Source of the DNA: an uncultured Actinomycetes bacterium
GTDB lineage: Bacteria; Actinomycetota; Actinomycetes; Nanopelagicales; Nanopelagicaceae
Direction: 5' to 3'
NCBI GenBank assembly: GCA_903821145.1
Contig: CAIJKC010000052.1
Location: 1 to 32,430, forward strand
DNA: 32,430 nucleotides
Shown here: piece after piece, positions 17,328-30,145 of the stretch
Numbering within the stretch: the stretch's first letter is position 1
Layout of the letters: each line of letters opens with the position of its first letter
The notes under the pieces: model-generated
The model's input: the letters and a program-made list of their open reading frames with translations, nothing else
The model's database searches: none
Told to the model about the DNA's origin: nothing
Program-made: the position numbers and the translations under genes

Positions 17328-18077
17328 ATGATTCTCTTTGAGGCGCTCCTTGCAGGACTCTTTATCGGCTCGGTCTTGGGCTTTGTTGGCGCCGGCGGTG
17401 CGATGGTCTCTGTCCCCATCCTGCTCTATATCTTCCACTTCACGAACCAGCAGGCGACGATCGCAGCTCTTGTCATTGTGGGTCTTGCTGCAGCATCTGG
17501 GGTCATTCCAAAATTCAAGAGCAAAGAAGTCCTTGTCCGAGAAGCGGTCTCCATCTGGGCGATTGGCCTCGTCGCAACCCTCTCCATGACAGCGCTGGCA
17601 AGTCATATCCATCCCAACGTTCTGCACATCGGCTTTGCCCTCGTTCTCATTGTTGCAGGCGGCTCGATGCTTCGTGGGCCTATCACGGCAGACCCAGAAC
17701 ACCGGATGTCTCTGCCAGTTCTCATTCTCGTTTCACTGATTGTCGGCACACTCACGGGCCTGTTCGGTATCGGTGGCGGCTTCCTCGCCATCCCAGTACT
17801 CGTCCTCTTTTATAACACGCCACAAAATAAGGCGGCAGGAACATCACTGCTCATCATCACGATGAACTGCGCAACATCATTTTTTGAACGCTATAAAAGT
17901 TGGCACGTTGTTGATTGGAAGACGCCCTTCACCATTGCACTGGTTGCAATCGTGATCTCGCGCCTGGCATCTCAGCGGAGCGGGAAGGTAAATGCCAAGC
18001 TGCTGCGAAGAGCATTTGGTTACCTGCTCTTTAGCCTCTCGGCATTCACTATCCTTAAAACTTTCTTCCTCAATTAA
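17328..18077 (+). CDS. Sulfite exporter TauE/SafE family permease
   Basis: A 249-residue membrane protein with about eight TM segments arranged as two repeats. Each repeat starts with the family's glycine-rich motif: GSVLGFVGAGGAMVSVPILL (about 18-37) and VGTLTGLFGIGGGFLAIPVLV (about 139-159). Members export sulfite, sulfoacetate or other organosulfur anions, but most are uncharacterised and the substrate cannot be told here. The gene stands alone between a terminator and a converging operon 18 bases after its stop. Its end is unusual: CTCAATTAAG, which includes the stop codon, is repeated in direct tandem at 18069-18088. Confidence 0.9.
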   Translation: MILFEALLAGLFIGSVLGFVGAGGAMVSVPILLYIFHFTNQQATIAALVIVGLAAASGVIPKFKSKEVLVREAVSIWAIGLVATLSMTALASHIHPNVLHIGFALVLIVAGGSMLRGPITADPEHRMSLPVLILVSLIVGTLTGLFGIGGGFLAIPVLVLFYNTPQNKAAGTSLLIITMNCATSFFERYKSWHVVDWKTPFTIALVAIVISRLASQRSGKVNAKLLRRAFGYLLFSLSAFTILKTFFLN

Positions 18078-18095: not shown

Positions 18096-19037
18096 CTAGC
18101 TCTTACGCTGATACCACTTTCGCCAGATCAGACGATGCACCGGAATCCAGTAAGGGATCCGCGAGATGATCGGAAGCAATGGCAAGAAGATCAAACCAAG
18201 GCTTAAGACTCCCATCAGCGACATCACAAGGATGTCAGCATTACCGGAAGATTTAAATGGTTCTATCTGATACCAGAGCGAGTAGAGCCACAACCACGAC
18301 TGTCCTGGCCATGAGCCAGTCTCATTCATAACCCCCCATTGATCTCCACTCAGGTGTTGAGCAGCAGCCTTATCTGGGAAGTAGGTACCGCTATCTGCCA
18401 AGAAGAGAAGTGGTTTGGTGAAGTTAGTAGGAAGGGTTGTATCACTTGTGGTGAGTGCGCCATCCAGTGCTCCACTTTGCGCCATCGAATAGAGCGCAGT
18501 CACAAGCGTTGGCACAGGTCCATATGCCCCTGTTGGATCAGCCAAGGCAAGTGCCTTGCCATCCTTAGTTAAGGCATCAGAATAGGCGCTCGCCCACGTG
18601 ATCTCTTGTTTGCTAGAAGCCAAGCTCCACACCGCAATTGCTGATTTTGTGGTGCTATCGGGTTCAATCGCTAACGGTTCAATCACAAAACTCTTCGCTG
18701 GATCAATCGGAATTGTAATTCCGCTGATCTTGGCTGGATTGATGGGCCCGATATTCTGGCCACTTCCATTGTTGTTATAGGGAGGTCCATAAGAAGCGCT
18801 GGTCGTTGTGCCAGCAAGCTCACTTGCAGCTGTCTGAACGAAATCAGCAGGTGCCTGTATTGACCACGACTGCATGGTTAACGCCTTCTCATCAGGTGAA
18901 CTAAAGAGTGCCGCCAATGACAGTGCTAAGAAGCCAACGACGACAACTGCCACGACAATCTCTTTGACGAGATCATATTCACGAAGTGGCCCACTCCATT
19001 TTTTGGAGGGATCAACGCTAGAGAGTTTATGTCTCAT
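18096..19037 (-). CDS. Membrane-anchored extracytoplasmic partner of a cytochrome b6-like protein (unknown function)
   Basis: About 313 residues, cotranscribed with the cytochrome b gene. Near the N-terminus lies one TM segment (about 26-47), followed by a ~210-residue extracytoplasmic region containing YGPPYNNNGSGQNIGP and many Thr/Ser/Pro. One or two C-terminal TM segments (about 260-292) and a basic tail IPYWIPVHRLIWRKW follow. I see no cysteine at all, so CXXCH heme and a Rieske cluster are excluded, and there is no PEWY motif. The C-terminal tail loosely resembles cytochrome b-associated subunits. Start choice: ATG 19037 lies eight bases after GCAGGTGA. A GTG at 19043, in a GTGA overlap with the upstream stop, is the alternative. 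The family is not recognised with certainty. Confidence 0.75.
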   Translation of the reverse strand: MRHKLSSVDPSKKWSGPLREYDLVKEIVVAVVVVGFLALSLAALFSSPDEKALTMQSWSIQAPADFVQTAASELAGTTTSASYGPPYNNNGSGQNIGPINPAKISGITIPIDPAKSFVIEPLAIEPDSTTKSAIAVWSLASSKQEITWASAYSDALTKDGKALALADPTGAYGPVPTLVTALYSMAQSGALDGALTTSDTTLPTNFTKPLLFLADSGTYFPDKAAAQHLSGDQWGVMNETGSWPGQSWLWLYSLWYQIEPFKSSGNADILVMSLMGVLSLGLIFLPLLPIISRIPYWIPVHRLIWRKWYQRKS

Positions 19038-19039
19038 TC

Positions 19040-19657
19040 TCACTCACCTGCCTCATCAATAGGTGGAACAACCCCTCGGCGTCTCACCAAGATCACATGC
19101 CAGAGAACAATCGCACCAAGAACAAGTGGCAGAAGTGAAACGTGTAACAAGATTGCTTGGCCAGTGTTGAGAGTATTAAAGAAAGCACCAATGCCCACGG
19201 CATTAAAACCATCTTTGGCTTGAGTGGCAATCCATTGTGAGTCAAAGTTGGTCTGAATGATGTAGCCGGTGAAACCGGTGATGATGGATGCAAAGAAGGC
19301 GAGGCATCCTGTGATCCAGGTAGCAAGTCGGCGGCCACGCCATGCGGCCATCCAGAACTTACCCCAGAGGTGCACAACCATGAAGACGAAGAAGAGCTCA
19401 ACGCTCCAGAGGTGAACCGAGTTCACGTAGTGGCCAACGCTGGAGGTATGCCACCAAGCCGGGCCTTCTAGCGTGAGATAGAGCCCTGACGCGATCAACA
19501 TGATGAGCGCGGCAATTGTTGCAACGCCGAAGATGTAGATCCAGGAGGCGACATATGCTGGTTGATGATCTGGAAGCAGATCCTCAGGTTCAAATTTATC
19601 AAGGGTGGCTGAGCGCACCCGACTCGTCCATGAACTCTTATTGCTCATTGTGCTCAT
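19040..19657 (-). CDS. Cytochrome b6-like diheme membrane protein (cytochrome b N-terminal domain)
   Basis: A 205-residue, four-TM cytochrome b domain. Heme ligands are visible as two pairs: His82/His96 (HX13H, in VHLWSVELFFVFMVVH) and His172/His187 (HX14H, in LHVSLLPLVLGAIVLWH). The X14 spacing in the second pair is a b6-type trait rather than mitochondrial cytochrome b. The loop GFTGYIIQ corresponds to the conserved G-x-TGY segment. The Cys that binds the extra heme c in b6 is replaced by Ile. No C-terminal cytochrome b domain or subunit IV (PEWY) is in the window. It overlaps both neighbours (ATGA upstream, GTGA downstream). It would carry electrons across the membrane between quinone and an unidentified partner. 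Confidence 0.88.
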   Translation of the reverse strand: MSTMSNKSSWTSRVRSATLDKFEPEDLLPDHQPAYVASWIYIFGVATIAALIMLIASGLYLTLEGPAWWHTSSVGHYVNSVHLWSVELFFVFMVVHLWGKFWMAAWRGRRLATWITGCLAFFASIITGFTGYIIQTNFDSQWIATQAKDGFNAVGIGAFFNTLNTGQAILLHVSLLPLVLGAIVLWHVILVRRRGVVPPIDEAGE

Positions 19658-19845
19658 CTCTTTCCACCTACTCGCTCGCTCTTCTTGCTCGCTTTTTCAT
19701 GATCTGGAAATGGCAGGAAAAGGGCAACAATGAAGATCACACACATAGAGATGATGATCATCAGATTGCCTGCAGAAACAGAGAATGGTCCAACGCTCAC
19801 ATAATGAGCAGGGTGGTCGAGGGAGATAGCCAAAAATCTCACCAT
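19654..19845 (-). CDS. Small single-TM protein leading the cytochrome b6-like operon
   Basis: A 63-residue protein with one strong TM segment (about 26-45, NLMIIISMCVIFIVALFLP) and a Lys/Arg-rich cytoplasmic tail. Its stop overlaps the cytochrome b start as ATGA, which supports it as a real coding sequence despite its size. It is probably a small structural subunit of the same membrane complex, like the small subunits of other cytochrome b complexes; this is inference. The start is ATG 19845; a weak AGG-containing ribosome binding site lies nine or more bases upstream. No cofactor-binding residue is visible. Confidence 0.7.
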   Translation of the reverse strand: MVRFLAISLDHPAHYVSVGPFSVSAGNLMIIISMCVIFIVALFLPFPDHEKASKKSERVGGKR

Positions 19846-20012
19846 GATGAGTTGCCTGTCCTTTCACTATTCTGAGAATTTGCTTACCTCAGTGTCGTAA
19901 TTGTTCAGGATTGCAACCTTGCTGACTGCAGATTCGCTTGCGCTAGCACTCAATTAGGAGCATAATGAAAAAAGAGTGGGGTTTTCCCGCTCACATAGAA
20001 GGAGTCCATTAC
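19846..20012. other. Divergent intergenic region between the cytochrome b-like operon and the LuxR-type gene
   Basis: The region carries the start signals of both genes. For the plus strand two start codons each have a ribosome binding site: AGGAG four bases before ATG 19965, and AGAAGGAG (19997-20004) eight bases before ATG 20013. Between them lies a hairpin (19974-19992) with arms GAGTGGG and CCCGCTC, including one G-T pair, and a loop GTTTT. I find no certain -10/-35 pair in either direction. Confidence 0.45.
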
Positions 20013-20327
20013 ATGGATATCAGAATTCTTATGCGCGATTTGACCCCCTTTGAACGGCTTGTAGCCGAACATATGTGTGATGGTCTTTCTAACGCAGCTA
20101 TCGCCCGTGAGACCGCACATACCGAAAAGGTGATCGAGAATACGATCTCTCGCATGTCTCGAGCATTTAGCATCCAATCGGGTCCTGATGTAAACCTGCG
20201 CGTCCTGCTCGCCTTGGCCTACCGAGCACAATTTGGTGATGGTTCCTTTGAGAAACTTGGCGTTGATTGCGTTCATGCAGAACTGGGCCCAGATGGCCGT
20301 AGGTACTGCAGCCGACATATCGAATAG
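20013..20327 (+). CDS. LuxR-type helix-turn-helix transcriptional regulator (no receiver domain)
   Basis: A small DNA-binding protein, 104 residues from ATG 20013 (120 from ATG 19965). The core LTPFERLVAEHMCDGLSNAAIARETAHTEKVIENTISRM is a LuxR C-terminal HTH: LT opener, GLSNAAIA turn, and recognition helix TEKVIENTISR. The tail ends with three Cys/His-containing stretches (DCVHAE, RYCSRHIE), so a metal or redox role is possible but unproven. There is no receiver, PAS or autoinducer domain, so it is an orphan output domain. I prefer the second start because its ribosome binding site is stronger and better spaced. It is divergent from the cytochrome b-like operon, making that operon a candidate target (inference). 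Confidence 0.82.
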   Translation: MDIRILMRDLTPFERLVAEHMCDGLSNAAIARETAHTEKVIENTISRMSRAFSIQSGPDVNLRVLLALAYRAQFGDGSFEKLGVDCVHAELGPDGRRYCSRHIE

Positions 20328-20475: not shown

Positions 20476-21066
20476 ATGAAGAGAAGAGCATTCGACAGAA
20501 TCACGAGTATGGTCGGCTTACTTTTGGCAGGAATATTGATTATCGCTGGCGGACTTCTCACCTGGGGCGGCACCTTCGCCAATAACCAAGTGAAGGACCA
20601 ACTCGCAGCACAGAAGATCACACTTCCCACTGCTACCCATAATCCCAAGGAGAGCGCCGCTGTGACCGCATTCTTTACCGCTAATGGCGGAAAGTTGATG
20701 ACAACGGGAAAGCAAGCACAGATGTATGCAGATCATTACATTGCATTCCATCTCCAAGGTATTGGTGGCGGAAAGGTCTACTCGGAACTATCGGGTGAAG
20801 AGATGGGCGTAAAGGCTCAACTCACAGCTGATCCAACAAATACCGTACTCTCCGCAAAAGTTGCCGCCCTCGATGGGCAGGTAAACACTGTCTTCAAGGG
20901 TGAATCACTGCGAGGCATGCTCCTCAATGCCTATGCATTCTGGCAATTAGGTCAGATCGCGATGATCGCTTCTTGGGTCACCTACCTAGGTGGATTGCTC
21001 TTGCTGATCCTCGCCCTCATGGGATTTGCACACTCCCGGCGCGCATCAGAGGATGATGCGATCTAG
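20476..21066 (+). CDS. Two-TM membrane protein with extracytoplasmic domain, function unknown
   Basis: A 196-residue protein with TM segments at about 13-31 and 163-184 and a ~130-residue domain between them that should face outside. The sequence between holds QLAAQKITLPT, MYADHYIAFHLQGIGGGKVYSEL and GMLLNAYAFWQLGQ just before the second TM. This architecture is common in actinobacteria, where such proteins are often mislabelled as LigA-type dioxygenases; no catalytic residues support that name, and the true role is unknown. It stands alone, preceded by an inverted repeat and followed by a 46-base hairpin. Confidence 0.8.
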   Translation: MKRRAFDRITSMVGLLLAGILIIAGGLLTWGGTFANNQVKDQLAAQKITLPTATHNPKESAAVTAFFTANGGKLMTTGKQAQMYADHYIAFHLQGIGGGKVYSELSGEEMGVKAQLTADPTNTVLSAKVAALDGQVNTVFKGESLRGMLLNAYAFWQLGQIAMIASWVTYLGGLLLLILALMGFAHSRRASEDDAI

Positions 21067-22654: not shown

Positions 22655-23467
22655 ATGTCACTTCGCCAGTACCGACCTCGTGCGCGCAATCGCAGGATGC
22701 TCTCTGGCGCGTGGGCGATAGTTTTGAATCTGCTCTTTGGAATCGCCGTAGTACTTCAAATGGCCTATCCGCTCATTCATGGTGATGCACTTTCAACGGT
22801 AACAATCCTTACCGTCTACTTCGGTGCCGCAGCAATGGTCATCCATGCCAACTTTGCATACGGTCTGCGATTCTCAGCCTCTCTACTCTTTCTGACTTTT
22901 ACCTACTCACTCGCGGTAGAAATTATTGGTAGTAAAACTGGATGGCCGTTTGGTACCTACCATTACGATCACTCACTCGGTTTGGCCATCGCTGGAGTTC
23001 CCCTCGTTGTCCCCTTTGCGTGGATCATGATCAGCTATCCCATCTTGATCGTGGCACGGCGAATCGGCAAGGGTTGGGTCTTCCTTTATGGAGGAGGCGC
23101 ACTTATGGCCTGGGATCTCTTCCTTGATCCGCAGATGGTAAGCGCCCATCGTTGGAGTTGGAGTTTCCATGGAACGTCGATTCCTTTTGAACACGAGATC
23201 CCACTCTCCAACGCTGCTGGTTGGCTCCTTGCAGGAATGGGAATCATGGCCTTGCTGCACTGGGCACTTCCCAAAGATCGACGCAAGCACGGCGCCTCAC
23301 TTCTCCTTCCCAATCTCTTCTTAGAGTGGCTCCTCTTCTCTGGCATCGTCGGAAATCTCTTCTTCTTCCATCGTCCTGGCGTCGCACTCGTTGGTGGTCT
23401 GACCTTTGGAATCATCCTTCTGCCATACTTCTTTGAACTTCGTTTTGGCCGCCCGGATACCTTTTAA
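22655..23467 (+). CDS. cruF: CruF-like carotenoid 1',2'-hydratase (DUF422 membrane protein)
   Basis: A 270-residue membrane protein with about seven TM segments. Its conserved block is EIIGSKTGWPFGTYHYDHSLG (89-109), GVPLVVPFAWIM (114-125) and MAWDLFLDPQMV (151-162). These are the hallmarks of the DUF422/CruF family. CruF of cyanobacteria and deinococci hydrates the terminal 1',2' double bond of the acyclic end of gamma-carotene or lycopene derivatives, giving the 1'-hydroxyl needed for glycosylation. The invariant Glu/Asp residues (Glu89, Asp154, Asp159) are candidates for the acid-base step. The gene lies six bases before the CruG-like glycosyltransferase, the same pair that makes myxol glycosides in Synechococcus. 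Confidence 0.85.
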   Translation: MSLRQYRPRARNRRMLSGAWAIVLNLLFGIAVVLQMAYPLIHGDALSTVTILTVYFGAAAMVIHANFAYGLRFSASLLFLTFTYSLAVEIIGSKTGWPFGTYHYDHSLGLAIAGVPLVVPFAWIMISYPILIVARRIGKGWVFLYGGGALMAWDLFLDPQMVSAHRWSWSFHGTSIPFEHEIPLSNAAGWLLAGMGIMALLHWALPKDRRKHGASLLLPNLFLEWLLFSGIVGNLFFFHRPGVALVGGLTFGIILLPYFFELRFGRPDTF

Positions 23468-23473
23468 ACTCTC

Positions 23474-24559
23474 ATGCACTACCTCCTTCTGACGATCTCA
23501 GCTTTTGCCGCGCTCTCTCTCCTCATCTCGATCCTCAACTTCTTCACGATCCGCCGAGTGAGAAATGCACCTTCACAGATCACCTCAAGGGTTTCGGTAT
23601 TGATACCAATGCGCAATGAAGAGTTCAATGCGCACGCACTCCTTGAAACTCTCCTGCGCTCCACCGGTCTAGAACATGTCGAGTACTCAGTCCTTGATGA
23701 TGGCTCGACTGATAAGACGCCAGCCATTCTCAGCGCGTTTAGCGATCGTGTAAAGATCCTGACAGGTGGACCTTTGCCTGATGGGTGGCTTGGCAAGCCG
23801 CATGCCTGCCATCTCTTGTCACAAGCAGCTACCGGTGAATACCTCGTCTTTCTTGATGCTGATCTGCGCGTGAAGCCAGATGCAATCGCCTCCTCCATTT
23901 CACTCATGGATTGCCTAGGGTGGGATTTTCTCTCCCCCTATCCAGCAGAACATGGCAAGAGTTTCTTGATGCACCTCGTTCAACCACTCCTGCAATGGTC
24001 CTGGCTCTCATCAGTTCCGCTGCGTCTTGCAGAAAGTGGTCGCCGTAATTCCATGGTTATCGCCAATGGTCAGTTCTTCATCGTTAAGCGTGCTGCATAC
24101 GATGCGGTCTCAGGCCATACCAGTGTGAAGAATGAAATTCTTGAGGACCTCTCTTTGGCGCGAAGATTAACAAGTGCTGGTTTTAAGGGTGGGGTCGCTG
24201 AAGCAAGTGCTGTGGCTGAGTGCACGATGTATGAAAGTGATGCAGATTTGATTGCCGGCTATACCAAATCACTCTGGAAAGCTTTTGGTGGACCGGTTGG
24301 CACCATGGCAACACTGCTCTTACTCACACTCACCCAGGTACTTCCCTTTCTTCTCATCCTGGCTGGCGTATGGGCGGCATTGATCCCCTTCTTCCTCGTC
24401 GCATCAACACACCTGCTTGCTGCTATTCGAGTTCGCACTCATCCAGGTAATGCCCTTCTTCACCCCTTTGCTGGCCTTGCTCTCATGGCCTTGATCATGG
24501 AGTCCTATCGACGCAAATCTCGTGGTCAACTGCAATGGCGTGGCCGCAGAGTTCTTTAA
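23474..24559 (+). CDS. cruG: Carotenoid glycosyltransferase, GT2 family (CruG/CrtQ-like)
   Basis: A 361-residue membrane-associated GT-A glycosyltransferase. It has an N-terminal TM (about 3-24), then SVLIPMRNEE (41-50), LDDGSTDKT (74-82), the family-specific GPLPDGWLGKPHAC (99-112) and the metal-binding LDADL (128-132). ILEDLSLARRL supplies the ED-x-x-L acceptor-side motif near 222-232. Two or three TM segments follow. The PDGWLGKPHAC block occurs in CruG and in 4,4'-diaponeurosporenoate glucosyltransferase CrtQ. Given the CruF-like neighbour, the likely acceptor is a hydroxyl on the acyclic carotenoid end. The sugar donor is unknown. It starts six bases after the cruF stop. Confidence 0.85.
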   Translation: MHYLLLTISAFAALSLLISILNFFTIRRVRNAPSQITSRVSVLIPMRNEEFNAHALLETLLRSTGLEHVEYSVLDDGSTDKTPAILSAFSDRVKILTGGPLPDGWLGKPHACHLLSQAATGEYLVFLDADLRVKPDAIASSISLMDCLGWDFLSPYPAEHGKSFLMHLVQPLLQWSWLSSVPLRLAESGRRNSMVIANGQFFIVKRAAYDAVSGHTSVKNEILEDLSLARRLTSAGFKGGVAEASAVAECTMYESDADLIAGYTKSLWKAFGGPVGTMATLLLLTLTQVLPFLLILAGVWAALIPFFLVASTHLLAAIRVRTHPGNALLHPFAGLALMALIMESYRRKSRGQLQWRGRRVL

Positions 24560-24566
24560 GGGTGGC

Positions 24567-24572
24567 TAGAGT
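24567..24572 (+). promoter_or_regulatory. -10 element of the CrtD-like gene (leaderless)
   Basis: TAGAGT is identical to the -10 of the ABC exporter operon. It ends six bases before the second of two adjacent ATG codons (24579), which decides the start. Confidence 0.55.
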
Positions 24573-24578
24573 TCGATG

Positions 24579-26108
24579 ATGCGCAAAGTCATTGTTATCG
24601 GTGCTGGTATGGGTGGCATGGCGGCAGCTGCGCGGTTAGCTCGAGCAGGACTCGACGTTGAAATCTATGAAGCAGCGGGACATGTGGGCGGCAAGTGTCG
24701 TACCGAATGGATTGGTGACTACGCCTTTGATACCGGACCCTCCCTTCTCACAATTCCAGCGGTCTATCGTGATCTCTTTAAGAAGACTGGCAAGAGATTA
24801 GAACTCGTACGTGAGCTCCAACCGGTGGACCCCGCCTTTGCCTATCACTTCGCCGATGGCAGACATTTCGAATTTGCCAACCTTGCTCTGCCTCAGATCT
24901 GTGAGGAGCTAGATCGCGTTCTCGGAAAAGGCGCTGGCGATGATTGGCATACTCTCATGCAGCGCGCGGAGGCGATGTGGGATGTTGCTCGCGGGCCTTT
25001 CATTGAATCTGAACTTCCTTCGATCCCAGCTCTGCTGCGACGTAAGGGCTTCCTCAAAGATCTCAAGCAGATATCACCTTTTAAATCTTTGGATACGCTC
25101 ACCAATACCTACACATCCAATCCCTACCTTAAAAAGATTATTCATCGCTACGCCACCTATACCGGTTCTGATCCGAGGCAAGCGCCTGCAGTACTACTGA
25201 CTATCGCATTTGTTGAAATCACCTTCGGTGCTTGGCATGTAAAAGGCGGAGTCGGAACTCTTGCTCAAGCGCTAGGCCAGCGGTGCGAAGAGCTGGGTGT
25301 GAAGATCCACCTCAACACACCTGTCGAAGCAATCATCACCGATGCAGGCACCGCAACCGGCATAAAAGTTGGCGGCAGAGAGATCAAGGCTGATTACATG
25401 ATCTCTAATGCCGATGCCGAGATCACCTTTAATACCTTGATCGCACCCACTGAAAAGGGTGCCAAGCGTGAGCGTCGAAAGCTGCAGAAAGCGGATCGCT
25501 CCCTTGCTGGCTTCTCCCTCCTCCTTGGTCTTGATAATTCCAAGGTCCAGGGCGAGCTCCCCCAGATGAAACACCACAACGTCTTCTTCCCAGAAAATTA
25601 CGAGCAAGAGTTCATCGATATCTTTGATCGAAACCAAGCGGTAACTGATCCGACCATCTACATCTGCGCCCCACACGATCCAACAATGGTTAAGGGTGAG
25701 AATAAAGAGGCGTGGTTTGTCTTAGTTAATGCTCCGCGCCATCATCCAGAGGGTGGCTTTGATTGGACGAAAGAGCCGGAGAAATATGCAGAGAAGATTC
25801 TGGCAAAGCTTGATGCCTTGGGGCTGCGTGTTTCTGAGAGATTAGATGTGATGGAGTATCGAACGCCGTATGACCTTGAAGTGGCAGTCAATGCGCCGGG
25901 TGGTTCAATCTATGGAACATCAAGTAATGGCAGCAGGGCAGCATTCTCTCGTGCAAAAAATAGGAGTGAGATTACAAACCTTTATAGCGTGGGTGGCTCA
26001 GCCCATCCTGGCGGTGGCTTACCACTTGTCGGAATGAGTGGGGAGTTAGTTGCTGAGGCGATTATCAGTGCTCAAGGCGGTGTAGGAATCGCGAAGGACT
26101 ACCACTAA
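24579..26108 (+). CDS. CrtI-family carotenoid desaturase, probably CrtD-like
   Basis: A 509-residue FAD enzyme of the carotenoid desaturase family. The N-terminal Rossmann motif is VIVIGAGMGGMAAAARLA with the distal acidic residue in VEIYEAAGHVGGK. FDTGPSLLTIPAVY follows near residue 50, and the C-terminal FAD motif is SVGGSAHPGGGLPLVGMSGELVAE. Two CrtI-type genes exist in the window. This one lies after CruF- and CruG-like genes and has the HPGGGLPLV ending and LVNAPRHHP segment of 1-hydroxycarotenoid 3,4-desaturases, so CrtD is preferred over phytoene desaturase. ATG 24579 is chosen over 24576 because it sits six bases from the -10. Its last 63 bases overlap the converging phosphatidyltransferase gene. 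Confidence 0.82.
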   Translation: MRKVIVIGAGMGGMAAAARLARAGLDVEIYEAAGHVGGKCRTEWIGDYAFDTGPSLLTIPAVYRDLFKKTGKRLELVRELQPVDPAFAYHFADGRHFEFANLALPQICEELDRVLGKGAGDDWHTLMQRAEAMWDVARGPFIESELPSIPALLRRKGFLKDLKQISPFKSLDTLTNTYTSNPYLKKIIHRYATYTGSDPRQAPAVLLTIAFVEITFGAWHVKGGVGTLAQALGQRCEELGVKIHLNTPVEAIITDAGTATGIKVGGREIKADYMISNADAEITFNTLIAPTEKGAKRERRKLQKADRSLAGFSLLLGLDNSKVQGELPQMKHHNVFFPENYEQEFIDIFDRNQAVTDPTIYICAPHDPTMVKGENKEAWFVLVNAPRHHPEGGFDWTKEPEKYAEKILAKLDALGLRVSERLDVMEYRTPYDLEVAVNAPGGSIYGTSSNGSRAAFSRAKNRSEITNLYSVGGSAHPGGGLPLVGMSGELVAEAIISAQGGVGIAKDYH

Positions 26109-26684
26109 CGAGAAGAGTTGTAGGGCGAGCCAGATCCAAGACGTTGCAGTTACGATTCCAAATCCCATGATGTAGGCGAGTAGCGCAACAGCTAAAAAGA
26201 TCGCACGCACTGGTCGTTCACAGACTGTAACAACGCCAAGCACTCGGTGGCCAAGTCCTGCTGCGCGGGCCCTCGCATACTCTTGCGTTAATGCGGCAAC
26301 CCAGGCAAGAGCAATCACTATCACTGGTGCGCCAATACGGTAGAAAGTAAGCGCCCAGAAGAACTCCACGACTCGATCGACAACCGAGTCAAGGGCAGCT
26401 CCCCAGAGCGTCACTTTCCCCGAGATGATGGCAAGTGAGCCATCAATGCCATCAGCAATCAAGGAGAGAATGACGAGGAAGAGTGCTGCAATGTGATGAG
26501 CTTGTTCCCAGGTAAGTACGCCAAGAAGCAAGCCGATGAGTGTTATTGCGTTGGGCGAAACTTTGAGTGCGTGAAGTGGTCTCACAAGTAGATACGAGAT
26601 AGTAAGCCAGCCTTTAACAATGCCACTTACTTCTGCTCCACCGTGAAGTTCACTCCACTGGCGCAAGAAGGCCTGCTTATTCAC
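26046..26684 (-). CDS. CDP-alcohol phosphatidyltransferase family protein
   Basis: A ~212-residue membrane protein with about six TM segments. The family motif D-x2-D-G-x2-A-R-x8-G-x3-D-x3-D appears as ADGIDGSLAIISGKVTLWG then ALDSVVDR. All four metal-binding Asp residues are kept, but the Arg after Ala is replaced by Ile, as I recall for an actinobacterial subgroup. These enzymes transfer a phosphatidyl or phospho-alcohol group from a CDP-alcohol; the substrate here is unknown, with inositol-phosphate and glycerol-phosphate both possible. I use GTG 26684, overlapping the metF stop; a TTG at 26693 is the alternative. The 3' end overlaps the CrtD-like gene tail to tail by 63 bases. Confidence 0.85.
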   Translation of the reverse strand: MNKQAFLRQWSELHGGAEVSGIVKGWLTISYLLVRPLHALKVSPNAITLIGLLLGVLTWEQAHHIAALFLVILSLIADGIDGSLAIISGKVTLWGAALDSVVDRVVEFFWALTFYRIGAPVIVIALAWVAALTQEYARARAAGLGHRVLGVVTVCERPVRAIFLAVALLAYIMGFGIVTATSWIWLALQLFSLVVVLRDSYTALSTDNRLSN

Positions 26685-27552
26685 GATGACCAAGTCCCAA
26701 GTTTTGAGCGATCGCCATGGTGGATGCTGCCGTGTTCATCGTATAGAAATGAAGACCCGGAACTCCAAGAGTGAGAAGTTTTTGCGACAATTGGGTTGCA
26801 ATCTCGATTCCGTAACTTCGAATTGCGGCGATATCCTCACCAAGTTCTGCAACCCGAGTAAGAATGTGTGCTGGAACTGGAGTACCAGAGAGTTCAGCCA
26901 TACGTGTGAGCTGCTTGCCATTGGTGATGGGCAAAATACCAGCGATGATGGGGAGCTTTGATCCTCGAGCACTGAGTGCTTCAACCAATCGTTCGTAGGA
27001 GGCGATCTCAAAGAAGAATTGTGTTGTGGCAAATATTGCACCGTGCTCCTCTTTGCGAATGAGGGTTTCAACATCGAGTGCAAAATCACCGTTCGATGCT
27101 GGATGGCCATCTGGAAATGCTGCCACTCCAACTTCAATGCCACCCTGGCTAATCGCAAGGTCAACCAGCTCATCTGCATGATCGAATCCACCTGGAGTTG
27201 TGACCCAATCGGCTCTCGGTCCCCCTACTGGATCTCCACGCAATGCCAGGATGCTGCTGATGCCAGCGCTCTTGTAGTGGCGCAGGATTTCGACGAGCTC
27301 ACCTCGCGTTGAACCAACACATGTGAGGTGGGCAACTGTTGCAATGCCTGTCTTGGCGGTGAACTCTTCGGCGATGCGAATGGTGCGATCTCGTGTACTA
27401 CCGCCAGCGCCGTAGGTGACGGAGACGAAATCTGGATTGAGCTGGCGAAGGCTCTCCACTGCTTGCCACAACCGGGACTCACCTTCGGCATCCTTGGGCG
27501 GAAATAGCTCGACCGAGAAGGTGGCTCGTGGAGTCTCAACAGGCGTAACCAT
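26677..27552 (-). CDS. metF: 5,10-methylenetetrahydrofolate reductase MetF
   Basis: MetF reduces 5,10-methylene-THF to 5-methyl-THF with FAD, supplying methionine synthesis. From ATG 27552 it has 291 residues, close to the E. coli length. The catalytic Glu is in FSVELFPPK (11-19). VSVTYGAGGS, VAHLTCVG, ILALRGDPVGG, FPDGHPAS (FAD and folate contacts) and ATTQFFFEIASY follow in the normal order of the TIM barrel. The longer open frame to 27594 would place 14 extra residues across the divergent crtE start, and a -10 (TACCCT, 27561-27566) sits eight bases before ATG 27552, so the shorter start is preferred. The phosphatidyltransferase gene overlaps its end. Confidence 0.94.
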   Translation of the reverse strand: MVTPVETPRATFSVELFPPKDAEGESRLWQAVESLRQLNPDFVSVTYGAGGSTRDRTIRIAEEFTAKTGIATVAHLTCVGSTRGELVEILRHYKSAGISSILALRGDPVGGPRADWVTTPGGFDHADELVDLAISQGGIEVGVAAFPDGHPASNGDFALDVETLIRKEEHGAIFATTQFFFEIASYERLVEALSARGSKLPIIAGILPITNGKQLTRMAELSGTPVPAHILTRVAELGEDIAAIRSYGIEIATQLSQKLLTLGVPGLHFYTMNTAASTMAIAQNLGLGHRE

Positions 27553-27560
27553 AGAGAGGC

Positions 27561-27570
27561 AGGGTACCTT
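27561..27570. promoter_or_regulatory. Overlapping divergent -10 elements of metF and crtE
   Basis: Only 24 bases separate the metF ATG (27552, minus) and the crtE ATG (27577, plus). A central GGTACC palindrome gives TACCTT on the plus strand (27565-27570), six bases before the crtE start. It also gives TACCCT on the minus strand (27561-27566), eight bases before the metF start. Both genes would be leaderless, and each promoter's -35 region would lie in the other gene's coding sequence. Two polymerases could not bind at once. Confidence 0.6.
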
Positions 27571-27576
27571 TACTGC

Positions 27577-28653
27577 ATGGAATCGCGCGAACACCTCACC
27601 CTGCCTGCGCTGCGTGATTCGGTCAATTCATCCCTCAAGGCCTTTATTGAAGCTGATAATCACTATCTGACCTCCATCGGCCCTGAACTACTACCCGTGG
27701 CAGATGCCCTCAAGGGCTTCTTGCTCGACAGTGGCAAGCGCTTTCGCCCACTCTTTGCAATCGTTGGCTATCTAGGAACTGGCGCAGAGCTCTCACCAGA
27801 AGTCTTCTCAGCGCTCTCAAGTGTCGAACTCGTCCATGTCTGCGCCTTGATTCACGATGATGTGATGGATGTATCGGACACCCGTCGCGGTGCACCCGCA
27901 ATCCACAAACACTTCGAAGCATTACACACCAAAAATTCCTTCTCTGGATCTGCAGAGCAATTCGGTATTGCAAGTGCCATCTTGCTCGGCGATTTAGCGC
28001 TCGTCTGGGCGGCAAAGATGCTCCATGAATCAAAGATCGCTCCAGACCAGATCATCTCTTCTTTACCAATCTTTGATGAGATGCAAGTTGAACTGATGGC
28101 GGGTCAGTACCTTGATATGCATGAGCAAGCACTTGCCAGTGAGAGCGTGGAGCGTTCACTTCGTGTTGCTCGCTACAAATCAGGAAAATACAGCATTGAA
28201 CGTCCGCTTCATTTTGGTGCCGCACTTGCACATAAGAACCCTGAGCAGCTCTATCCAATTTATTCAGCATATGGAATTCCACTGGGTGAAGCGTTCCAAC
28301 TCCGCGATGACATGCTCGGTGTCTTTGGAGACTCAGCCGAGACCGGCAAGCCAGCAGGAGATGATCTTCGTGAAGGAAAGCGCACCGTCATGATGGCGAT
28401 GACACATGAGCTGGCTACGAGCGCCCAGCGTGCCACAATCAAGGAGCTCTTTGGCCGTGCAGATCTGACACCAGCTGATATCCAAACCCTTCGCGCCATC
28501 ATTGTTGATACTGGTGCTCAGGCGAGAGCTGAGGAACTCATCTCAGAGCTCACGGACGAGGCGATCGCTGCCATCGAAAACCCCTTGATTTCACCAATTG
28601 CCCAAGATCTCCTGCATCAAATGGCGATGATCGCCACAAAACGAAGGGTTTAA
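27577..28653 (+). CDS. crtE: Polyprenyl diphosphate synthase, probable geranylgeranyl diphosphate synthase CrtE
   Basis: A 358-residue trans-prenyltransferase making the C20 precursor of carotenoids. The first Asp-rich motif DDVMD (94-98) is followed by RRGAP (103-107). The second motif region is LRDDMLGVFGD (242-252), as seen in actinobacterial GGPP synthases. GKRFRP at 53-58 binds the allylic or isopentenyl diphosphate, and VELMAGQYLDM lies in the middle. Residues before the first Asp motif (VELVHVCALIH) are small enough to allow chain elongation beyond C15, fitting C20 or longer. A longer-chain quinone-side-chain synthase is the alternative, but the phytoene desaturase gene seven bases downstream favours CrtE. 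Confidence 0.9.
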   Translation: MESREHLTLPALRDSVNSSLKAFIEADNHYLTSIGPELLPVADALKGFLLDSGKRFRPLFAIVGYLGTGAELSPEVFSALSSVELVHVCALIHDDVMDVSDTRRGAPAIHKHFEALHTKNSFSGSAEQFGIASAILLGDLALVWAAKMLHESKIAPDQIISSLPIFDEMQVELMAGQYLDMHEQALASESVERSLRVARYKSGKYSIERPLHFGAALAHKNPEQLYPIYSAYGIPLGEAFQLRDDMLGVFGDSAETGKPAGDDLREGKRTVMMAMTHELATSAQRATIKELFGRADLTPADIQTLRAIIVDTGAQARAEELISELTDEAIAAIENPLISPIAQDLLHQMAMIATKRRV

Positions 28654-28660
28654 GACCGCA

Positions 28661-30145
28661 ATGGCTAAACAGATTAAAGGACCAACCGATCACGTCGTCA
28701 TCGTCGGGGCAGGTCTTGCCGGGCTCAGCACAGCGCTTCGATTAGCTGGCGCTGGCCGCAAAGTGACCGTCCTTGAGCGTGAGAGCGTGCCAGGTGGGCG
28801 CAATGGACTCCTTCAGCAAGATGGTTACTCCTTTGATACCGGCCCCTCTGTTCTCACCATGCCATCTCTCATCGCCGATGCCTTCGCCTGCGTCGGTGAA
28901 GATATGAAGGATTGGCTTGAACTCATGCCAGTCTCACCGCTCTATCGCGCCTTTTATGAAGACGGATCACAACTGGATGTCCATGCTGACACTGCCAAGA
29001 TGCAAGAAGAGATCCGCACTGTCATTGGTGAAAAAGAGGCAATCGGGTATGCCAAGTATGTAGATTTTGTGACGAAGCTTTATAAGTATGAGATGAATGA
29101 CTTCATTGATCGCAATATCGATAGTCCACTTAACTTACTTACACCCAATCTTGCAAAGCTCGTTGCCCTTGGTGGTTTTAGAAGGTTGGCACCGAAGGTC
29201 GAGCAGTACCTGAAAGATCCGCGCACCCAGCGCGTCTACTCCTTCCAAGCAATGTATGCAGGTGTGAGCCCGCAACAAGCACTCGCTATCTATGCCGTGA
29301 TCGCCTATATGGATTCAGTCAATGGTGTCTTCTTCCCCAAGGGTGGAATGCATGCAGTCCCTCGTGCTTTGGCCGCTGCCGCTGCCAAACACGGAGTCGA
29401 CTTCCACTACAACACCACTGTCACATCGGTAGAACACCACAATGGCCGTGCAACGGCAGTCTTAACTGAGAATGGTGAACGCTTTGAGTGCGACGTGGTT
29501 GTCCTCAACCCAGATCTTCCCGTCGCGTGGCGCGAGCTCTTGGGTAGCACTCCCAAAAAGGTTGCAAAGCTTAAGTATTCGCCCTCATGTGTAACGATGT
29601 TGATTGGTTCAAATAGGTCCTACGACCGACTCGCCCATCACAATATCCACTTTGGAAAGTCTTGGGATGGCGTCTTCGACGAGCTCATCAAGAAGAAGAT
29701 CCTGATGACCGATCCGAGCCTGCTCGTGACCGTGCCCAGCATGGATGATCCATCCCTTGCTCCTGCTGGCAAGAGCTCCTATTACGTCCTCTTCCCAACT
29801 CCAAACCTCACTGCAGATATTGATTGGAAGAAGATTGGTCCGCAGTACCGAGATCAGATGATTCGCACCCTCGAAGAGCGTGGCTACGACGGTTTTGGTG
29901 ACTCGATTGAATTCGAACACATGACCACCCCGCTTGATTGGCAGGCGATGGGGATGGAAGCCGGTGCACCATTTGCTAGCGCCCATACTTTTATGCAGAC
30001 CGGGCCATTTAGACCCCGCAATATTGCCCAAGGATTTGAGAATGTTGTCTTCACCGGATCTGGAACTCAACCTGGAGTTGGCGTACCTATGGTCTTAATC
30101 TCAGGACGCCTTGCCGCCGAACGGATCGTCGGAAGCATCAAGTAA
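28661..30145 (+). CDS. crtI: Phytoene desaturase CrtI
   Basis: A 494-residue FAD-dependent desaturase that converts phytoene to lycopene or related polyenes. The FAD-binding Rossmann fold is at the N-terminus (VVIVGAGLAGLSTALRLAGAG, about 12-32; Glu in TVLERES). YSFDTGPSVLTMPSLI follows near residue 55, and the C-terminal family motif is VVFTGSGTQPGVGVPMVLISGRLAAE. It retains FFPKGGMHAVPRALA in the substrate domain. It lies seven bases after crtE and is the better phytoene desaturase candidate of the two CrtI-type genes. The phytoene synthase gene is not adjacent; it begins at 32320 beyond a two-gene minus-strand insertion. It converges on apt with six bases between stops. Confidence 0.92.
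   Translation: MAKQIKGPTDHVVIVGAGLAGLSTALRLAGAGRKVTVLERESVPGGRNGLLQQDGYSFDTGPSVLTMPSLIADAFACVGEDMKDWLELMPVSPLYRAFYEDGSQLDVHADTAKMQEEIRTVIGEKEAIGYAKYVDFVTKLYKYEMNDFIDRNIDSPLNLLTPNLAKLVALGGFRRLAPKVEQYLKDPRTQRVYSFQAMYAGVSPQQALAIYAVIAYMDSVNGVFFPKGGMHAVPRALAAAAAKHGVDFHYNTTVTSVEHHNGRATAVLTENGERFECDVVVLNPDLPVAWRELLGSTPKKVAKLKYSPSCVTMLIGSNRSYDRLAHHNIHFGKSWDGVFDELIKKKILMTDPSLLVTVPSMDDPSLAPAGKSSYYVLFPTPNLTADIDWKKIGPQYRDQMIRTLEERGYDGFGDSIEFEHMTTPLDWQAMGMEAGAPFASAHTFMQTGPFRPRNIAQGFENVVFTGSGTQPGVGVPMVLISGRLAAERIVGSIK

What the first reader, a model, noticed from the sequence alone, without database searches (positions are those of the whole stretch)
18096..20327. Compact cytochrome b6-like electron-transfer module without Rieske, cytochrome c or PEWY partner
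Three minus-strand genes overlap by stop/start codons. They encode a 63-aa single-TM protein, a 205-aa cytochrome b6-like protein with two His pairs (HX13H at 82/96, HX14H at 172/187), and a ~313-aa protein anchored at both ends with a large extracytoplasmic domain. The partner has no cysteine, so it cannot hold c-type heme or an FeS cluster. No PEWY quinol-oxidation motif is present, and the extra-heme Cys of b6 is Ile. A LuxR-type regulator with Cys/His-rich tail is divergent. Inference: a separate membrane redox complex, perhaps passing electrons between menaquinone and an unknown extracytoplasmic acceptor, distinct from the respiratory bcc complex.
Basis: partly seen in the sequence, partly recalled or inferred. 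Interest (0 to 1): 0.75.

Follow-up and report, generated by a model that had tools for sequence, protein, structure and literature searches.

The report
Rieske-less cytochrome b6-type membrane complex
Three neighbouring genes in a freshwater actinobacterium, always found together in scattered actinobacteria, appear to build a heme-containing membrane complex shaped like the core of the respiratory bc complex but lacking its usual iron-sulfur and cytochrome c partners, so it probably wires the quinone pool to an unknown substrate outside the membrane.

Summary
Three minus-strand genes, A (63 aa, one TM), B (205 aa, cytochrome b6-like, four invariant His) and C (313 aa, no Cys), form a self-contained module. 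The triad recurs in nearly all of 80 actinobacterial loci. In 396 phylum-wide genomes, C and strong B occur in the same 11 and are adjacent. Natural A-B, B-C and A-B-C fusions indicate one complex. The same genome has a separate complete qcrCAB, and 788 kb of flanks hold no Rieske motif, so this is not a split bc1. A and C match no Pfam or NCBIfam family.

New here: a template-free AlphaFold model of a natural B-C fusion aligns with whole cytochrome b (Z 11-12). Its aligned range runs past B into C's two TM helices, and C's invariant MNETGxxPGQxWLW lies near PEWY. Qi-type anchors (R192 of B, K25/E26 of C) are invariant. C is therefore probably a highly derived subunit-IV-like protein with a large helical insert; sequence-only tests of this are inconclusive. 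Best reading: a diheme b complex linking an inner menaquinone site with an outer substrate pocket, without Rieske bifurcation. Substrate and direction are unknown. The LuxR-type gene is not a dependable part.

The parts
19654..19845 (-). Gene A: 63-aa single-TM protein (expected N-out, C-in), small subunit; S24, N27, F38, A41, P45, F46 near-invariant in 89 sequences
   Evidence: naturally fused to B in several loci (L083, L084, L085, L090, L104, L109) and to B and C in L030
19040..19657 (-). Gene B: 205-aa cytochrome b6-like protein, 4 TM, heme ligands H82/H172 (P side) and H96/H187 (N side), near-invariant P-side H70, R192 at the Qi position
18096..19037 (-). Gene C: 313-aa protein, TM 23-45, helical extracytoplasmic domain about 55-230, invariant MNETGxxPGQxWLW 237-251, TM about 267-290; no Cys; probably subunit-IV-like membrane part with a large insert
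   Evidence: natural fusion to B in L072
20013..20327 (+). Divergent 104-aa LuxR-type HTH protein with invariant CxH-X10-CxxH tail; adjacent but not a dependable part of the module

Best explanation
A, B and C are subunits of one membrane complex built on the cytochrome b6 / subunit IV plan. B holds two stacked b hemes. C supplies helices equivalent to E and F, a Qi-type Lys-Glu pair on the inner side, and on the outer side an altered motif (PGQxWLW) near the PEWY position. C also carries a large helical domain on the face where Rieske and cytochrome c/f normally work. A is a small stabilising subunit. Electrons pass one at a time through the two hemes between a menaquinone site on the inner face and a small-molecule (probably quinol-like) redox partner in an outer pocket, without Rieske bifurcation. 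I favour outer substrate oxidised and menaquinone reduced, because that direction would conserve energy. Shown: one conserved operon, natural fusions, invariant heme ligands, no Rieske or c-type partner in the loci, separate bcc in the genome. Modelled: docking of C as helices E/F. Inferred: quinone reaction, outer substrate, direction.
For: Triad in nearly all of 80 loci, with A-B, B-C and A-B-C fusions; in the expected topology all fusion linkers are cytoplasmic. The same 11 of 396 phylum genomes carry C and strong B, adjacent. Four heme His invariant; b6-type HX14H spacing; b6 is the nearest solved family. Template-free model of the L072 B-C fusion aligns with whole cytochrome b over model 31-495 / chain 24-304 at Z 11-12.4 with about 180-224 residues, against about 148 for b6 alone; four rows end at model 447-448 (PGQ) on cyt b 271-277, i.e. 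at or near PEWY. C's first-TM profile lands on helix E with K25 on the Qi lysine in 20 of 23 cyt b / subunit IV proteins. Bovine K227/D228 open helix E at the matching place. The Qi Arg of b6 (R207) corresponds to invariant R192. Complete qcrCAB elsewhere in the genome. No Rieske motif in 788 kb of flanks, with a working control.
Against: Sequence-only homology of C to subunit IV is not significant: hhalign of C against QcrB finds nothing, shuffled-column decoys exceed the real score in several of 200 cases, per-protein p values are 0.02-0.8 (a few true C frames may remain among its decoys). The fusion model has pLDDT 74 and pTM 0.66, with the B loop 134-165 under 50 and the PGQ region at 55-60, so the register of PGQ against PEWY is uncertain by about 4 residues. 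No control fold with an unrelated two-TM partner was run. Quinone binding, heme content and redox activity are inferred from residues only. Habitats and gene neighbourhoods name no substrate.
Confidence: 0.5

Rival explanations
1. A-B-C is a membrane electron conduit that feeds (or drains) a separately encoded extracytoplasmic redox protein; C's helical domain is a docking platform and there is no small-molecule pocket of its own.
For: C has a large, strongly conserved extracytoplasmic domain without cofactor ligands. One locus (L102) has a multicopper oxidase with a twin-arginine-like start directly upstream.
Against: No soluble redox partner is conserved near the triad; the multicopper oxidase occurs in 1 of 80 loci. 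The longest invariant stretch of C is next to the membrane, not on the exposed domain.
Confidence: 0.22
2. C is unrelated to subunit IV; B works like a stand-alone diheme b561-type protein (superoxide oxidase or ferric-reductase-like) with a novel partner.
For: Minimal diheme four-TM proteins without other cofactors exist (established knowledge); C has no sequence match to any family.
Against: B is a b6-family protein, not b561: PF01292 is below cut-off (15.8 against 30.1 bits). The B-C model gains about 30-75 aligned residues over b6 chains on whole cytochrome b.
Confidence: 0.15
3. The module is an assembly or heme-handling factor rather than a respiratory enzyme.
For: In five Acidimicrobiaceae-type loci it sits beside ctaA/ctaB heme O/A synthesis genes.
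Against: No such link in the other loci; Qi-type residues and both heme pairs are invariant, as expected for catalysis.
Confidence: 0.08
4. It is a split or degenerate part of the ordinary bc complex.
For: B is homologous to the N-terminal half of cytochrome b.
Against: A complete qcrCAB with Rieske, diheme c and PDWY cytochrome b lies on another contig; many relatives have both; residues are invariant across several actinobacterial classes.
Confidence: 0.03

Closest known systems
Cytochrome b6 plus subunit IV (petBD) of b6f and b6-type Rieske complexes, including those of other Actinomycetota (e.g. L152, L161)
   Same: B is a b6-family protein with HX13H/HX14H; gene order B then C mirrors petB-petD; modelled helices A-F arrangement; Qi-type residues
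   Different: No Rieske or c-type gene in the locus; no PEWY; subunit-IV-like C has only two TM helices and a helical insert of about 180 residues; extra-heme Cys absent; additional small subunit A
Actinobacterial bcc complex (QcrABC, NF050120 for QcrB)
   Same: Distant homology of B to the QcrB N-terminal half (hhalign E 3e-14)
   Different: QcrB is one long protein with PDWY, with Rieske QcrA and diheme QcrC; present separately in the same genome
ExtP, b-type cytochrome of selenite/tellurite reduction operons (NF040969)
   Same: Short stand-alone b6-like cytochrome; matches all 48 B members weakly
   Different: 46.7 bits against a cut-off of 290; no such operon seen around
Superoxide oxidase CybB / cytochrome b561 family (from knowledge)
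   Same: Works with two b hemes and a quinone and no other cofactor (functional analogy only)
   Different: Different family; PF01292 match below cut-off

Membership tests
Cytochrome b6 / cytochrome b N-terminal family (PF13631, PF00033) | Profile match above curated cut-off and two bis-His heme sites on helices B and D | tested here: met
   46.5 bits (cut-off 27) and 29.5 bits (27.2); H82/H96/H172/H187 invariant in 92 sequences
Rieske/cytochrome b (bc1/b6f) complex | Rieske [2Fe-2S] subunit encoded with the cytochrome b | tested here: not met
   No Rieske motif in 788 kb of flanks of 80 loci (control positive); the qcrA Rieske belongs to the separate qcrCAB
Rieske/cytochrome b (bc1/b6f) complex | PEWY (or PDWY) quinol-oxidation motif | tested here: not met
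   Absent from B and C; PGQxWLW conserved instead
Rieske/cytochrome b (bc1/b6f) complex | c-type cytochrome partner (c1, cc or f) | tested here: not met
   No conserved CxxCH membrane protein in the flanks; C has no conserved Cys
Subunit IV / cytochrome b C-terminal half (PF00032) | Sequence-profile match | tested here: not met
   No hit for any of 57 C members; hhalign not above decoys
Subunit IV / cytochrome b C-terminal half (PF00032) | Helices E and F packed against the four-helix b6 bundle | tested here: inconclusive
   L072 B-C fusion model aligns with cyt b through helix F, Z 11-12.4, but pLDDT is 74 and the aligner gives ranges only
ExtP (NF040969) | Equivalog cut-off 290 bits | tested here: not met
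   46.7 bits
Actinobacterial QcrB (NF050120) | Cut-off 500 bits | tested here: not met
   25.7 bits
Cytochrome b561 / CybB (PF01292) | Cut-off 30.1 bits | tested here: not met
   15.8 bits
Diheme b quinone-reactive complex | Two b hemes and quinone binding in purified protein | not testable with these tools
   needs biochemistry

The most novel reading that the evidence does not exclude
A previously undescribed class of cytochrome b complex that keeps the b6 / subunit IV core and both substrate pockets but has dropped Rieske and cytochrome c, replaced PEWY by PGQxWLW, and added a new helical extracytoplasmic domain. It would carry out non-bifurcating transmembrane electron transfer between menaquinone and an extracytoplasmic small molecule.
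Probability: 0.35. Interest if true: 0.8.

Novelty: new variant of a known kind. Interest (0 to 1): 0.55.

Why it matters
Cytochrome b and Rieske subunits are normally treated as an inseparable pair, because bifurcated quinol oxidation needs both. A conserved, three-gene, Rieske-free version with a rebuilt outer pocket would be a natural experiment on what the b6 / subunit IV core can do alone. It would also add an uncharted electron entry or exit point to the respiratory chains of freshwater actinobacteria and of culturable Streptomyces and Curtobacterium.

Tried and rejected
Split bc1 component: rejected by the complete qcrCAB on contig C107. LuxR-type gene as dedicated regulator: tested in 60 relatives. 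It co-occurs with the triad within the genus (24 both, 6 neither, 1 and 1; Fisher p 5e-5, relatedness not corrected). But four other genera of the family carry it without the triad, one has the triad without it, and it stays next to the 196-aa gene (window 20476-21066) in most genomes where the triad is absent or elsewhere; so it is not counted as a part. Conserved genomic neighbours: none besides A-B-C; ctaA/ctaB in 5-6 loci, multicopper oxidase in 1, TauE in 4. Extracytoplasmic domain of C: no confident match among solved structures (best Z 2.9 and only in the C-terminal part); the domain was not folded and searched alone, so this does not show a new fold. Profile comparison of C with QcrB and subunit IV: not significant. 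Mixed unpaired alignment for the fusion model first overlaid C on B and was discarded. Plasmids, phages and viral contigs: no relative of C found. Literature: seven searches showed no description of this triad in the titles and abstracts listed; no paper was read in full and the library is open-access only.

Full report
Observation. The window lies in a 1.34-Mb actinobacterial assembly (G000, contig C52), by its gene content and relatives a freshwater Nanopelagicales-type lineage (inference). The three minus-strand genes exist as described. A is 19654-19845, B 19040-19657 and C 18096-19037. A and B share ATGA. C starts at ATG 19037, two bases after B's stop, or at GTG 19043 with a four-base overlap. 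B passes the Pfam cut-offs for cytochrome b N-terminal families (PF13631 E 5e-12; PF00033 E 8e-7) and its best solved relatives are b6 chains. A and C match nothing credible in Pfam or NCBIfam, and a C profile matches no PDB chain.

Separate from the bcc complex. The same genome carries a full qcrCAB on contig C107: QcrC of 263 aa with two CxxCH, QcrA of 334 aa with the Rieske ligands, and QcrB with PDWY. Many relatives likewise have both B and QcrB. A Rieske-motif scan of all 80 flanking regions (788 kb) found none; the same pattern does find QcrA.

Conservation and unity of the module. B-like loci were fetched from GTDB genomes. A, B and C occur together in essentially all complete loci, almost always in that order (L102 is an exception for A). 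They span Actinomycetes (Streptomyces humidus, S. violaceusniger, Curtobacterium ammoniigenes, Nakamurella, Propionibacteriaceae), Acidimicrobiia (Aciditerrimonas ferrireducens and others) and Solirubrobacterales. Natural fusions occur: A-B (several loci), B-C (L072, open frame 596 aa) and A-B-C (L030, 629 aa; a second frame of 642 aa in the same genome). In an even sample of 396 genomes of the phylum, C is found in 11 and strong B (E below 1e-70) in the same 11, adjacent in every case. Weaker B matches in that sample that were inspected are ordinary complexes: L152 and L161 have Rieske, b6, PEWY subunit IV and multiheme c genes, and L159 has a longer cytochrome b with PPWY. The module is patchy: 25 of 32 genus members have it, and several nearly complete genomes lack it. 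So it is an accessory function.

Anatomy. In 92 B sequences the heme ligands H82, H96, H172 and H187 are invariant, H70 on the outer loop is 98% conserved, the four packing glycines (G44, G58, G117, G131) are conserved, and the b6 extra-heme Cys position is Ile or Val. R192 sits where b6 has the Qi-site R207 (alignment; the site assignment is established knowledge). In C, Y21, D22, K25 and E26 open the first TM, SPD closes it, and MNETGxxPGQxWLW precedes the second TM. Cysteine is absent or unconserved, so C carries no c heme or FeS cluster; no His or Met set that would bind metal is conserved in the outer domain apart from M237.

Structure. AlphaFold of window C alone (57 sequences) gave pLDDT 82, with a helical outer domain 55-226, mostly above 75 and largely above 90, and a poorly defined MNETG-PGQ region. 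No solved fold matched. The natural L072 B-C fusion was folded with 64 sequences (pLDDT 74, pTM 0.66). VIA-align matches it to whole cytochrome b at Z 11-12.4 over model 31-495 and chain 24-304, with about 180-224 aligned residues, against about 148 for b6 chains alone. The extra residues can only come from C, and several alignments end with model 447-448, the PGQ site, at or near the PEWY position of cytochrome b. This places C's two TM helices as helices E and F. Sequence tests are weak: hhalign E 0.0016 for the N-terminal part, not above shuffled decoys; an ungapped helix-E profile lands with K25 on the Qi lysine in 20 of 23 proteins, at per-protein p of 0.02-0.8. The exact register at PEWY is unresolved (sequence scan and structure differ by about four residues).

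The LuxR-type gene. It is a 104-aa HTH protein with an invariant CxH-X10-CxxH tail. Within the genus it tracks the triad (Fisher p 5e-5, relatedness not corrected), but it is found without the triad in four other genera of the family, is absent from one that has the triad, and in most of the inspected cases keeps its own neighbour, the 196-aa gene, when the triad is elsewhere. I do not count it as part of the module.

Mechanism. The conserved heme ladder plus inner-side Qi anchors make a menaquinone site on the inner face likely (inference). The altered outer motif, the near-invariant H70 and the conserved B cd loop make a second, outer pocket likely (modelled and inferred). Without Rieske there is no high-potential acceptor for bifurcation, so one-electron steps through the hemes between the two sites are the simplest reading. 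The outer substrate and the direction are unknown. If both sites used the same quinone pool the complex would leak proton motive force, so a different outer substrate is expected. Many source genomes bear names suggesting acidic, iron- or humus-rich habitats (mine, mire and northern-lake isolates); that is a lead from record titles only.

Verdict. Confirmed, and with more structure than reported: a conserved, apparently undescribed three-subunit variant of the cytochrome b6 / subunit IV core without Rieske or cytochrome c. Function remains inferred.

Noticed in passing
window 20013-20327 (+): LuxR-type HTH protein without receiver domain, with invariant C-terminal CxH-X10-CxxH, the ligand order of a Rieske cluster with a shorter spacer; possible metal or FeS sensor. 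It usually travels with the 196-aa membrane gene at 20476-21066, in family members with and without A-B-C.
   Followed up: partly
L030 (G047:C7) and G047:C31: One genome carries two frames of 629-642 aa at B matches; L030 fuses A, B and C into one protein, and the second is probably the same fusion (sequence not read).
   Followed up: partly
L093, L098, L100, L101, L107: In these Acidimicrobiaceae-type loci A-B-C sits next to ctaA and ctaB (heme O/A synthesis).
   Followed up: partly
L102:4351-5832: Multicopper oxidase gene directly upstream of B in this one locus, with a weak A match downstream of C instead.
   Followed up: partly
window 17328-18077 and L171, L172: The slot between a TauE-like gene and the LuxR-type gene holds A-B-C in the window but an aquaporin-like gene in two genus members whose A-B-C lies on another contig.
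   Followed up: partly
window 22655-30145: Likely carotenoid biosynthesis cluster (two phytoene-desaturase-like genes, GGPP-synthase-like gene, CruF-like and glycosyltransferase-like genes), named by eye from the translations.
   Followed up: no
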